In this document: in pieces, positions 47,571 to 64,000 of the stretch
Numbering within the stretch: the stretch's first letter is position 1
How the letters are laid out: the number at the start of each line of letters is the position of its first letter
Assembly (NCBI RefSeq): GCF_015864575.1
Contig: NZ_JADYWW010000003.1
Span: 176,270-240,269, forward strand
Direction of reading: 5' to 3'
Source: Salinibacterium sp. SWN248
Lineage (GTDB): Bacteria > Actinomycetota > Actinomycetes > Actinomycetales > Microbacteriaceae
Length of the DNA: 64,000 nt
Translations under genes and position numbers: made by a program
Notes under the pieces: generated by a model
Database searches by the model: none
What the model was told of the DNA's origin: nothing
Seen by the model: only the letters and a program-made list of their open reading frames with translations

Positions 47571-47571
<1 letters not shown>

Positions 47572-50063
47572 TGAAAATTCCCATGAGTTGGTTGCGGGAA
47601 TTCGTTGAAATCCCCGCAGACGTTACGCACGAGCACGTTCACGCTGCCCTCGTGAAGGTCGGCTTTGAAGAAGAAGACGTCCACGGCTTCGATATCTCCG
47701 GTCCCGTCGTTGTTGGCCAGGTTCTTGAGTTCGTCGGTGAACCCCAGTCCAATGGCAAGACCATCAACTGGTGCCAGGTTGACGTGGGCGAGGCTGAGCC
47801 TCGCGGCATCGTCTGTGGCGCTCACAACTTCGTTGTCGGCGACAAGGTCGTAGTCACCCTTCCTGGTTCGGTCCTTCCTGGCCCGTTCCCGATCGCTGCG
47901 CGCAAGACCTATGGTCACGTCTCCGATGGAATGATCGCGTCCACGCGCGAGCTTGGTCTCGGAGACGAGCACGACGGCATCCTCGTTCTGTCCACGCTAG
48001 GTCTCGACCCCGAGGTCGGCACGAGCGCGATTGAACTGCTCGGCCTTGACGATTTCGCGGTAGAGATCAACGTCACGCCCGACCGCGGTTACGCCATGTC
48101 GCTGCGTGGTGTCGCTCGCGAATACGCTCTCTCGACCGGGGCGACCTTCACTGACCCTGCTGACGCTCCCACGATCACCGCGGCGAGCGGTTTCCCCGTG
48201 GTCATCGCTGATAACGCTCCCATTCGAGGGCGCGACGGCGTACGAGCCTTCGTTACCCGTGTCGTACGGAACGTGGATGTCACCAAGCCAACACCGTCGT
48301 GGATGATTACGCGGTTGACGCTTGCCGGCATCCGCTCGATCTCGCTCACTGTCGACATCACGAATTATGTGATGCTCGAGCTCGGGCAGCCGATTCACGC
48401 GTACGACCTCGACCGCGTAGCCGATGGCCTCACGGTTCGCCGTGCTCAGGCGGGGGAGACCCTCACGACCCTCGACGACAAGTTGCGCACGCTCAATCCC
48501 GAAGACCTGCTCATCACCGATGAGTCCGGCCCCATCGGCTTGGCCGGCGTCATGGGCGGGGCAAGCACTGAAATTACGGATGCCTCCACCAACGTTCTGA
48601 TTGAGGCAGCGAACTTCGAACCGATCTCGATCGCGCGCACGGCTCGTCGTCACAAGCTCGGCAGTGAAGCATCGCGTCGTTTCGAGCGTGGTGTTGACCC
48701 GTTGGTGGCTCCCGCGGCCGCAGCGCGCGTCGTCGAGCTGCTGGTCGAGCTGGGTGGCGGAACTGTCGATGAGCTCGGCAGCGACCTGCTCGCCGACCAT
48801 GCTGCAGATGTCGTTGACCTGCCCGAGGGCTACGCTCAGGGCCTCATCGGTGTGAACTACTCCGCTGATGAGATCACCGATTCGCTTCAGGCAATTGGCG
48901 CTGAAGTCACGGTTACCGACACTGGCTGGAGCGTGACCCCTCCGAGTTGGCGTCCCGACCTCGGTGATAAGACCACGCTCGTCGAAGAAGTTGCCCGCAT
49001 CGTGGGCTACGACCGTATTCCGGCTGTCCTGCCGGTAGCCCCTCCGGGCCGCGGGCTCACTCGCGCTCAGCGCCTGCGTCGCACCGTCTCTAACAGCCTC
49101 GCGGCATCCGGCCTCACCGAGGTGTTGGCTTACCCGTTCATTTCCCAGCACTCGAACGATCTCTTTGGCTCGCCGGAGGTCGGGGGAGCGACCACGATCA
49201 AGCTCGCGAACGCCTTGGACCCGGATGCCGCAACCCTGCGCCGTTCGTTGCTACCGGGCCTCGCGGCGATCGCGCACCGCAATGTCTCTCGCGGGCTCAC
49301 GGACCTTGCTCTCTTCGAGGTCGGAACAGTGTTCCTGCCCGAAGCGGGCCACCGTTACGGAAGCACCTCGTTGCCGCTCGGCTATGAGCTGCCCAGCGAC
49401 GCCGCTCTCGCCGAACTGCGCGCGAGCATCCCCGAACAGCCCTGGCACGTTGCCGCGCTGTTCCTCGGTGACGCCGTTACGCGCCAGCCGGGCCAGCAGC
49501 CACTCTCTCGCGGGCTTGCGGATGCTCTCGCCACGGTTCAGCAGCTGGCGGCAACTCTCTCGGTCGACATCAACGTCGTGACGGGGAGCCATCAGGCGAT
49601 GCACCCCGGTCGCACCGCCGAGCTTCGCGTGGGCGACCACACGGTCGGCTATGCCGGCGAATTGCTCCCTGCTTTGGCTCTTGAACTTGATTTGCCGCGC
49701 GTTGTTGCGGTGCTTGAGCTCGACCTCACCGTGCTGATCGCGAGTGCTGCTGAAGATATCGCCGCGACGCCGATCGTCTCCTACCCGGCCGCTACGCAAG
49801 ACCTGTCTCTCGTAGTGCCGGTGGCGGTTCAGGCTGGCGAGTTGTTGGCCATCATTCGCGAGGGTGCAGGCGAACTTTTGGAGAACGTGCGGCTTGTCGA
49901 TGACTACCGTGGCACCGGCATCCCGGAGTCGCACAAGTCGCTGACCTTTGCGCTGAGGTTCCGCGCCAATGACCGCACGCTCACGCAGGCAGAAGCGACC
50001 GACGCAAAGAACGCCGCGGTTGCGCTTGCCGGCGAACTCGTAGCCGCTGAGCTGCGCGAGTAA
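47571..50063 (+). CDS. pheT: phenylalanine--tRNA ligase beta subunit
   Basis: An 830-aa subunit. Order: N-terminal B1, tRNA-binding EMAP-like domain (VVGQVLEFVGEPQSNGKTINWCQVDVG), B3/B4 editing domain (about 215-385), B5 DNA-binding-like domain, the catalytic-like B6/B7 domain, and a C-terminal ferredoxin-fold anticodon-binding domain (about 735-830, starting YPAATQDLSLVVP). Full length for the family. Translationally coupled to pheS; a terminator follows. Confidence 0.96.
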
Positions 50064-50077
50064 CCGCCAGTTACGGC

Positions 50078-50116
50078 GAAAGCCGGTTGCCACTCACTGA
50101 GTAGCAACCGGCTTTC
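50078..50116 (+). terminator. pheST terminator
   Basis: Perfect 13-bp arms GAAAGCCGGTTGC and GCAACCGGCTTTC with a 13-nt loop, 15 nt after the pheT stop. Confidence 0.88.
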
Positions 50117-50165
50117 TGCGTTTGTCGATTAGCCTGCCGTGCGCTCTGGGCACTACTCTATAAAT

Positions 50166-50258
50166 GTGACCGACTCCCGCACTTGCAGCCAGCGATTCTC
50201 GCTGAGCTTTGTGGTGCCGTCTTCGCCGGTTCTCCGCGGGGCTGACGAGCGACGATAG
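50166..50258 (+). CDS. candidate 30-aa leader peptide of the arginine operon
   Basis: GTG 50166 opens a 30-codon frame closing at TAG 50256-50258, 84 nt before argC. A TACTCT box (50154-50159) lies exactly 6 nt before the GTG, the same spacing as for clear leaderless genes in this window. The peptide has Arg at positions 5, 10, 24, 29 and 30 and ends ADERR-stop, with the last two codons CGA CGA. The end of the frame lies within alternative hairpins (see findings). This looks like an attenuator leader peptide sensing charged tRNA-Arg. It is a prediction from sequence only and could be chance. Confidence 0.45.
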   Translation: MTDSRTCSQRFSLSFVVPSSPVLRGADERR

Positions 50259-50342
50259 GCGGAGTTTCGCCACAACCCACGAGGTCGTGTGTGATTCGCC
50301 GCCGCAAGTGTTCTCGATTCCGAACCCACTGAAGGTAATTCC

Positions 50343-51389
50343 ATGTCAATTTCGGTCGCTGTGGCCGGTGCCAGCGGTTATGCCGGTGGCGAGCTTCTTC
50401 GCCTGCTGTCCACCCATCCTGAGTTCGATGTCACGACAGTGACCGCGTTTAGTAACGCCGGTCAGCGTCTCATCGATGTACAACCGCACTTGCGGTCTCT
50501 CGCACACCTTGTTTTCCAGCCGACGGAGCCCGAAGTGCTCGCCGGCCACGATGTTGTTTTCTTTGCTCTGCCACACGGCAAGTCGGGAGCGTTGACGGCT
50601 GAGCTCAGCCCCGACACTCTCGTCGTTGACTGTGGGGCCGATCACCGCCTGACCAGTGAAGACGACTGGGCTGCGTTCTACGGCGGCGAGTTCTACGGTG
50701 CCTGGGACTACGGAATGCCCGAACTGCTGCATGCCACCGGGGGAACGCAACGTCAAGTCCTCGCCGGTTCGAAGCGTATTGCGGTGCCCGGGTGCAATGT
50801 GACAGCCATCACGCTGGGATTAGCTCCCGGCATCCGTTCCTCGTTGATCGAAGCAGAAGACATTGTGGCCGTTCTTGCGGTTGGACCGTCGGGGGCGGGC
50901 AAGAGCCTCAAGGTGAACCTCCTGGCGAGCGAAATGATGGGTTCAGCTTCGGCATATGCCGTTGGTGGCACTCATCGGCATACTCCCGAGATCGTGCAGA
51001 ACTTGAAGGTCGCTGGCGCTGCATCGGTAACAGTCTCGTTCACTCCAGTTCTCGTGCCCATGTCACGCGGCATCTTGGCGACCTCCACCGCGAAGCTCGC
51101 CGACGGGGTCACCGCAGCTCAGATTCGGGAAGCGTGGGAAACCGCGTATGCCGACGAGCCGTTCATTCATGTCCTCCCCGAAGGCCAGTTCCCGCGCACC
51201 GCTGATACGTTGGGCGCGAACACGGCCCTGATCGGGCTCGCGGTTGATGAAGCTGCTCGCCGCGTAGTTGTCGTCAGCGCAATCGACAATCTTGTTAAGG
51301 GCACCGCAGGCGCCGCCATTCAATCGACAAATATTGCGCTGGGCCTTGAGGAAACCCTCGGTCTGGCGCTGGACGGAGTAGCACCATGA
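50343..51389 (+). CDS. argC: N-acetyl-gamma-glutamyl-phosphate reductase
   Basis: This 348-aa NADPH-dependent enzyme performs the third step of arginine synthesis. Nucleotide motif [17 protein letters not shown] is at the N-terminus; the catalytic cysteine is in [17 protein letters not shown] (about residue 150), and the family HRHTPEI segment lies near 210. GAAGG lies about 7 nt before the ATG. It has a 177-nt leader if transcription starts at the box before the leader peptide. It is the first gene of argC-J-B-D-F, and its stop overlaps argJ by 4 nt. Confidence 0.97.
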
Positions 51390-55563: not shown

Positions 55564-55580
55564 GGCGGCATGAAGCCGCC
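55564..55580 (+). terminator. small hairpin after argF
   Basis: GGCGGC-atgaa-GCCGCC, 5 nt after the argF stop; six GC pairs, no U-tract, probably partial termination. Confidence 0.5.

Positions 55581-55625: not shown

Positions 55626-58264
<2,639 letters not shown>

Positions 58265-63789: not shown

Positions 63790-64000
<211 letters not shown>

What the first reader, a model, noticed from the sequence alone, without database searches (positions are those of the whole stretch)
50154..50342. Putative arginine attenuator: leaderless uORF ending Arg-Arg-stop within mutually exclusive hairpins before argC
Seen: a TACTCT box 6 nt before GTG 50166; a 30-codon frame with five Arg codons, the last two being CGA CGA directly before TAG. 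CTCCGC (50232-50237) can pair with GCGGAG (50259-50264). The same bases can instead pair as GGCG (50258-50261)/CGCC (50268-50271) or GGCGG (50258-50262)/CCGCC (50299-50303). A ribosome waiting at codons 29-30 would cover the first pairing and favour the others. This is the logic of classical amino-acid attenuators. Leaderless attenuator peptides have been reported for Cys genes in actinobacteria; an arginine version in this family is, to my knowledge, not standard annotation.
Basis: partly seen in the sequence, partly recalled or inferred. Interest (0 to 1): 0.72.

Follow-up and report, generated by a model that had tools for sequence, protein, structure and literature searches.

The report
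Leaderless arginine-sensing leader before argC
In front of the arginine-making genes of this bacterium and of most genera sampled from its family, in which no arginine repressor gene was found, lies a tiny reading frame with a rarely used arginine codon at a fixed distance from a predicted RNA hairpin; ribosomes short of arginine would likely pause there, block the hairpin and so are predicted to keep the genes switched on.

Summary
A leaderless-type short frame (TANNNT box, mostly 6-7 nt, GTG/ATG) with clustered Arg codons precedes argC in 103 of 156 loci (40 of 66 genera) of the window's family. The peptide drifts, but an in-frame Arg codon sits exactly 5 nt before the GGC that opens a predicted hairpin; it is CGA in 102 of the 103. 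Independently of the peptide, 98 of 101 leaderless-like starts are in frame with that CGA and open. CGA depends on tRNA-Arg(ACG) in this genome. ArgR was found in 0 of 199 family genomes but in 181 of 184 order genomes outside the family, where sampled argC genes lack the frame and often carry an ARG box. What the hairpin does (termination or translation control) is open; I favour termination without a U-run. In three genera without the frame, the tail of pheT itself carries the same codon, spacing and hairpin. All evidence is computational.

The parts
50154..50159 (+). -10-like box TACTCT; predicted transcription start at the GTG
   Evidence: a TANNNT box 6-7 nt before the start was found in 27 of 27 genus loci and is a criterion, not a result, of the 103 loci; start of transcription not measured
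50166..50258 (+). leaderless-type upstream reading frame (30 codons plus TAG), leader peptide ...ADERR*
50250..50252 (+). sensor codon CGA (codon 29), exactly 5 nt before the hairpin's 5' arm
   Evidence: in frame at this spacing: CGA in 95 of 96 loci, 99 of 100, 102 of 103
50253..50255 (+). second Arg codon CGA (codon 30), not conserved outside ERR* types
   Evidence: CGA, CGC or CGT in ERR* types, other residues in many genera
50258..50262 (+). P1 5' arm GGCGG of the predicted hairpin
50263..50298 (+). variable inner hairpin P2
   Evidence: folds; sequence differs between genera, foldedness kept
50299..50303 (+). P1 3' arm CCGCC
50304..50330 (+). spacer between hairpin and argC ribosome-binding site; its length is nearly constant between genera
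50331..50335 (+). GAAGG, likely Shine-Dalgarno sequence of argC
   Evidence: SD-like letters in 102 of 103 frame loci, but also in 27 of 52 other resolved loci
50343..51389 (+). argC, first gene of the probably controlled operon (argC-J-B-D-F, then argG at 55626-56825; no argR between argF and argG)
50079..50115 (+). inverted repeat after pheT (AAAGCCGGTTGC/GCAACCGGCTTT), perhaps a terminator separating pheT from the leader
   Evidence: by eye; not listed by the simple scan

Best explanation
A leaderless-type upstream reading frame before argC likely works as an arginine attenuator in which a ribosome short of charged tRNA-Arg is predicted to stall at a CGA codon five bases before a predicted hairpin, mask the hairpin's 5' arm and so keep the arginine operon expressed. 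Shown by sequence comparison: the frame, its in-frame CGA at fixed distance, the conserved potential for the hairpin, and the lack of any ArgR match in the family. Inferred: transcription starts at the GTG; the ribosome translates from the bare 5' end; CGA (read through the ACG anticodon, recalled to carry inosine) is the rate-limiting codon; with enough arginine the ribosome runs through to the stop, leaves, and the hairpin forms. Inferred and least certain: the formed hairpin lowers expression by premature transcription termination that does not use a U-run and is probably helped by Rho or NusG on the C-rich stretch that follows. In this family the device would replace the ArgR repressor. 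In three genera without the short frame the last codons of pheT probably do the sensor's job.
For: Frame: 98 of 101 leaderless-like starts are in frame with the CGA and open; peptides of 18-39 residues drift between genera. Sensor codon: of 96 loci chosen without this motif 95 have an in-frame CGA 5 nt before GGC; the other, L132, has CGT there; this holds whether the frame stops at once (CGA NNN TAG GCG) or runs on to a TGA. CGA is 101 of 626 other Arg codons in these frames and 19 of 202 Arg codons in ten window genes. Arg anticodons in this genome: ACG, CCG, TCT, CCT, none TCG, among 44 tRNA matches. Hairpin: in 36 of 38 genera it closes from the first G, mean z -3.7, 34 of 36 below -2; inner helices fit their own partner better than swapped ones (16.1 against 14.1, sd 0.44, 0 of 500); 17 cells changed on both sides against 9.8 (sd 2.4) in shuffles, 2 of 500 as high. 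Blocking the stalled footprint hardly changes predicted Shine-Dalgarno access (0.50 to 0.53), which speaks against sequestration. Context: ArgR N-domain in 0 of 199 and C-domain in 0 of 120 family genomes, N-domain in 181 of 184 order genomes outside the family; strict ARG box in 32 of 62 named outside loci and 0 of 153 family loci. Laboratory precedent: CGA slows ribosomes in the his leader (PMC4046918, passages); Arg codons in a uORF sense arginine in Salmonella speF (PMC6386406, passages).
Against: No transcript, ribosome or expression data. In 69 of 100 frame loci (29 of 39 genera) the argC site, typically TAAGGT, also fits a TANNNT box 6-7 nt before the argC start, so a second, leaderless argC promoter that bypasses the leader cannot be excluded there; the window and its ten closest loci (GAAGGT) do not fit it. 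No U-run after the hairpin: 0 of 36 genera have 5 or more T in the next 8 bases. The hairpin ends 37-43 nt before the argC start in 31 of 36 genera, a constancy a pure terminator would not need. The four outer pairs almost never vary and RNAalifold found only these, without covariation; in the pair counts, partners slid by 3 columns still paired in 79.2% and 74.6% of cells against 87.9%; a contiguous-pair swap test of the downstream arm was weak (41 of 500). With the whole leader free, the predicted probability of P1 averages 0.75 over 99 loci and is low in some genera. In speF frequent and rare Arg codons both served. 53 of 156 loci of the same family were not classed as having the frame.
Confidence: 0.6

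Rival explanations
1. Same sensor, translational output: the hairpin, when formed, hinders initiation at argC (standby site, ribosomes coming from the uORF, or mRNA decay) instead of ending transcription.
For: Nearly constant hairpin-to-start distance in 31 of 36 genera and SD-like letters in 102 of 103 frame loci; no U-run. The mycobacterial cysteine uORFs are called translation attenuation in a passage of PMC13236596.
Against: Predicted Shine-Dalgarno access is the same with and without the hairpin.
Confidence: 0.25
2. Classical attenuator with competing hairpins, as the first reader proposed (CTCCGC/GCGGAG against GGCGG/CCGCC).
For: The letters are there; in g30, g33, g37, g42, g56, g57 and g77 the upstream pairing has a mean predicted probability above 0.5.
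Against: Weakened in 3 of 11 near relatives and no better than swapped arms across 38 genera; a ribosome at codons 29-30 would cover both alternatives.
Confidence: 0.05
3. Arginine itself acts on the nascent Arg-rich peptide in the tunnel, as in the fungal arginine attenuator peptide, so that arginine excess stalls the ribosome.
For: Arg-rich C-terminus next to a stop in many members; fungal precedent (PMC11550727, passages).
Against: Peptide sequence and length drift and the stop codon moves, while one codon and its distance to the hairpin stay fixed: a codon sensor rather than a peptide sensor.
Confidence: 0.04
4. Not a translated frame: only a conserved RNA motif (CGA-N5-GGCG hairpin) recognised by something else, argC being expressed mainly from its own leaderless promoter.
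For: CGA and the outer hairpin letters are conserved as nucleotides; a leaderless-type box stands before argC in 69 of 100 frame loci.
Against: Strong frame bias of upstream starts, 98:3:0, all 98 open; the window's own clade lacks the argC box.
Confidence: 0.06

Closest known systems
Leaderless polycysteine uORFs of mycobacterial cys operons (Canestrari et al. 2020; not held; known here from the title in a reference list and a passage of PMC13236596, and from passages of PMC1262725)
   Same: Actinobacterial leaderless short frame ahead of an amino-acid operon, codons of the end product near the stop, no conserved terminator hairpin
   Different: Senses cysteine; here arginine, one codon at fixed distance from a hairpin, another family and other genes
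Classical ribosome-mediated attenuators (trp, his; actinobacterial ilvB in PMC10272879 and PMC13236596, passages)
   Same: Leader peptide with codons of the end product; ribosome position decides the RNA fold
   Different: No conserved antiterminator, no U-run; the ribosome would mask the hairpin directly
Salmonella orf34-speF leader (PMC6386406, passages)
   Same: Arg codons in a uORF read out arginine supply through RNA folding, with Rho involved
   Different: Controls ornithine decarboxylase in a proteobacterium, Shine-Dalgarno-led frame, conserved peptide domain, other structures
Fungal arginine attenuator peptide (CPA1, arg-2; PMC11550727, passages)
   Same: Arginine, uORF, a gene of arginine synthesis
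   Different: Acts through a conserved nascent peptide and stalls in arginine excess
ArgR and ARG-box repression of argC
   Same: Box before the same gene in sister families
   Different: A DNA-binding repressor, not found in the window's family

Membership tests
Ribosome-mediated amino-acid attenuator (general) | Short translated leader frame upstream of a biosynthetic operon | tested here: inconclusive
   Frame conservation and frame bias strong; translation not measured
Ribosome-mediated amino-acid attenuator (general) | Codons for the pathway's end product at the regulatory position | tested here: met
   Of 96 loci chosen for Arg-rich frames but without this position, 95 have CGA there and L132 has CGT; a CGN codon there is a criterion
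Ribosome-mediated amino-acid attenuator (general) | RNA structure whose formation depends on ribosome position | tested here: inconclusive
   Prediction only: the hairpin starts 5 nt after the sensor codon, inside the assumed footprint; dependence not measured
Classical trp-type attenuator | Conserved antiterminator competing with terminator | tested here: not met
   107 of 500 swaps as good; one pair lost in 3 of 11 near relatives
Classical trp-type attenuator | Intrinsic terminator with U-run | tested here: not met
   0 of 36 genera with 5 or more T in the next 8 bases
Leaderless actinobacterial uORF attenuator (cysteine type) | Transcript begins at the uORF start codon | not testable with these tools
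   Only the -10-like box, mostly at 6-7 nt, is seen
Arginine attenuator peptide (fungal) | Conserved peptide sequence | tested here: not met
   Peptides drift between genera
ArgR regulon | ArgR gene and ARG box | tested here: not met
   N-domain 0 of 199, C-domain 0 of 120; strict box 0 of 153 upstream regions, 5 with at most one mismatch (pattern recalled)

The most novel reading that the evidence does not exclude
A whole bacterial family has discarded the ArgR repressor and runs its arginine operon on a one-codon translational sensor: a CGA codon parked five bases before a hairpin. Some genera have even dispensed with the leader gene and use the last codons of an unrelated essential enzyme, phenylalanyl-tRNA synthetase beta, as the sensor, so that a full-length housekeeping gene doubles as the leader peptide of the next operon.
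Probability: 0.42. Interest if true: 0.85.

Novelty: new variant of a known kind. Interest (0 to 1): 0.72.

Why it matters
The survey of actinobacterial amino-acid leaders that I could see reported no conserved RNA element for arginine operons (PMC1262725, passages). Here a family in which no ArgR was found shows what probably took over, with a natural experiment across 66 sampled genera: leader present, sensor moved into pheT, or no leader and a leaderless-looking argC. It gives a sharp, cheap test of how leaderless translation, a slow wobble codon and a hairpin without a U-run could combine into a switch.

Tried and rejected
Rfam on the window at gathering thresholds: only the start of a 16S rRNA gene at 63790. 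Distant DNA search in plasmids: five records, all matching inside argC. RNAalifold on the MAFFT alignment: only four outer pairs, no covariation; the alignment holds 48 of 99 sequences (50 references were made; L109 and L088 were dropped as near copies). Antiterminator pairing: rejected. Shine-Dalgarno sequestration: not predicted. Further copies of the motif in the own genome: one exact match, at this site; with up to two mismatches 12 hits against 17 for the reversed pattern, so no second copy stands out. The PheT-tail codon count (CGA 9 of 9 against 8 of 51 elsewhere, 0 of 17 where argC is leaderless-looking, loci without Arg at that place left out) is partly circular: seven of the nine were classed by a motif that includes CGA and two (L133, L156) were added by hand. 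L038, put in that class by the script, is a short frame without a matching -10 box. Four loci missed by the first script were added by hand.

Papers: PMC1262725, PMC8632094, PMC13236596, PMC11550727, PMC6386406, PMC4046918, PMC4833913 and PMC10272879 were seen as passages only; all others as search listings. That I know of no description of this element rests on searches in an open-licence library only; most subscription papers are not in it.

Full report
What was checked. All letters and coordinates of the finding are right. The neighbours are pheT (47571-50063) and argC-argJ-argB-argD-argF-argG. An inverted repeat follows pheT at 50079-50115 (by eye; the simple scan did not list it).

Relatives. 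ArgC was located in 27 of 27 genus genomes and 189 of 199 family genomes. One search listed 150 matches: 30 given as loci (4 of them genus members already held) and 120 with coordinates only, of which I fetched 100; about 40 further matches were not listed. With the 27 genus loci this makes 153 upstream regions; three of genus g85 were added, so 156 loci in 66 genera. The family is taken to be Microbacteriaceae from the names of ArgC relatives such as Frigoribacterium, Subtercola, Clavibacter and Cryobacterium (that these belong to Microbacteriaceae is recalled).

The frame. In 27 of 27 genus loci a TANNNT box stands 6-7 nt before a start codon whose frame ends ERR* (26) or ARRS* (1, L024, ATG start). 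In the family a script asking for a leaderless-like start (box 5-8 nt before ATG/GTG), 12-45 codons, at least 3 Arg in the last 16 residues and a stop 40-150 nt before argC found 96 of 147 resolved loci; 6 were unresolved, and four of these were then added by hand, making 100 loci in 39 genera. A second script that instead asks for a CGN codon 5 nt before GGC in such a frame gave: frame 103, argC leaderless-looking 38, PheT-tail type 8, other 6, unresolved 1; by genus 40, 19, 3 and 4. By hand I move L038 (g24) from the PheT-tail to the frame class and L133 (g36) into the PheT-tail class, so that the PheT-tail genera are g5, g32 and g36.

The sensor codon. Of the 96 loci, selected without reference to this position, 95 have an in-frame CGA exactly 5 nt before GGC; the other, L132, has CGT there (one search counts 102 CGA and 1 CGT). 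This holds both when the frame stops directly (CGA NNN TAG GCG) and when it reads on through GGCGACG to a later TGA. The position of the ribosome relative to the hairpin is thus what is conserved, not the peptide, its length or its stop. The frame test does not use the peptide: among 110 loci holding the motif, leaderless-like starts 40-130 nt upstream fall 98 in frame, 3 in frame 1, none in frame 2, and all 98 are open; a reverse-strand control with 34 motifs gave one start. CGA makes up 19 of 202 Arg codons in ten window genes and 101 of 626 other Arg codons in the frames. The genome's Arg tRNA anticodons are ACG, CCG, TCT and CCT, so CGA depends on ACG, recalled to carry inosine and to pair poorly with A. 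In the his leader of an enterobacterium CGA pairs gave high de-attenuation, read there as slow decoding (PMC4046918, passages). Against a need for CGA: in Salmonella speF frequent and rare Arg codons both mediated regulation (PMC6386406, passages).

The hairpin. Folding from GGC to argC gives in most of the loci shown a long hairpin with outer arm GGCGACG/CGTCGCC or a variant and a variable inner part. In 36 of 38 genera it closes from the first G; mean z is -3.7 and 34 of 36 lie below -2. Counting pairs on alignment A1 (48 sequences): 92.9% of cells pair in the outer helix; 17 cells are changed on both sides against 9.8 (sd 2.4) in shuffles, 2 of 500 as high; partners slid by -3 or +3 columns still pair in 79.2% and 74.6% of cells against 87.9%. 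The outer four pairs are nearly invariant and say nothing; RNAalifold found only these. Inner helices fit their own genus better than swapped ones (16.1 against 14.1, sd 0.44, 0 of 500), whereas a contiguous test was weak (41 of 500). With the whole leader free, P1 has a mean predicted probability of 0.75 over 99 loci, and in seven genera the upstream alternative exceeds 0.5. Support is therefore good for a hairpin and moderate for its exact inner pairs.

What it does. The assumed footprint of a ribosome with CGA in its A site covers the 5' arm; forcing it unpaired removes P1 by construction and leaves predicted access to the argC ribosome-binding site unchanged (0.50 to 0.53 over 99 loci). 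No genus of 36 has a U-run after the hairpin; the spacer is C-rich and G-poor (43% C, 21% G; hairpins 38% and 35%), and in 31 of 36 genera the hairpin ends 37-43 nt before the argC start. Unchanged access and the C-rich stretch favour an effect on transcription, perhaps through Rho; the constant distance favours an effect on translation. I commit to termination at moderate confidence and keep translation as the main rival. A complication: in 69 of 100 frame loci (29 of 39 genera) the argC site, typically TAAGGT, also fits a leaderless-type box 6-7 nt before the argC start, so argC may there have a second promoter behind the leader; the 11 loci of the window's own clade (GAAGGT) do not fit it.

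The missing repressor. The ArgR N-domain was found in 0 of 199 family genomes (9 of 14 control genomes rang) and the C-domain in 0 of 120 (8 of 14 rang). In the order sample 181 of 198 had the N-domain; of the 17 without, 14 belong to the window's family. Outside the family argC often carries an ARG box: strict in 32 of 62 named loci, at most one mismatch in 51 of 62, none in shuffles; family 0 of 153 strict and 5 with one mismatch; named Microbacteriaceae 0 of 17 strict and 3 with one mismatch (the box pattern and the sorting of names into families are recalled). The frame was found in 0 of these 62 and in 4 of the 17 (L168 too short and left out; two of the four are unnamed Micrococcales assemblies that I placed in the family). 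In one search it was found in 0 of 23 loci of other families and 5 of 6 family loci (the sixth, L238, has no upstream sequence; L236 and L237 repeat genomes already counted).

The PheT tail. In g5, g32, g36 and Frigoribacterium (L156) no short frame was found, pheT ends about 55-76 nt before argC in the eight loci measured, and its tail reads GAG CGA NNN GGG GCG, that is CGA-N5-GGCG, with a partner arm in the short gap that folds into the same kind of hairpin. Where argC is leaderless-looking, the same Arg of PheT is CGC or CGG in 17 of 17 loci that have Arg there, 8 others having another residue. The class was partly defined by the motif, so the count is not an independent test, and the g5 and L133 argC sites (TAGGGT) also fit a leaderless box. 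On an ArgC tree of 67 sequences the g5 and g36 groups lie apart and the short frame occurs on both main branches of the family, but backbone support is low.

Not explained. In 38 of 156 loci argC looks leaderless and no attenuator was seen, although no ArgR was found in the family; how these control arginine synthesis is unknown.

Limits. Everything is comparative and predictive. Species are related, so counts are not independent events. The footprint size used is recalled.

Noticed in passing
window 50126-50133 and genus loci L014-L029: CGATTAGC, in many distant congeners GCGATTCGC (a near palindrome), recurs about 20-30 nt upstream of the leader's -10 box; possibly a protein site or promoter part (by eye).
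   Followed up: no
window 55564-55580: Short GGCGGC-ATGAA-GCCGCC hairpin between argF and argG, the place where other actinobacteria are recalled to carry argR.
   Followed up: no
L039, L128, L051 and similar loci: Read-through leader peptides end like the PheT tail (RRLSATSHR, RRLGATPLR, VRFGAPLFG against ERFGATLRE), hinting that some leaders arose from a pheT end or converged on it.
   Followed up: partly
L048, L067, L070 and 35 other loci: In 38 of 156 family loci argC itself looks leaderless (often TAGATT-N6-ATG), with no attenuator seen in a family without any ArgR match.
   Followed up: partly
argC start of 69 frame loci, e.g. L014, L016, L101: TAAGGT-N6-ATG reads both as a Shine-Dalgarno site and as a leaderless-type -10 box, so argC may have a second promoter there.
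   Followed up: partly
window 63790-64000: The window ends in the start of a 16S rRNA gene.
   Followed up: no
window 50247-50261: The exact 15-base core GAGCGACGATAGGCG occurs once in the genome; with up to two mismatches it is no commoner than its reversed control.
   Followed up: yes
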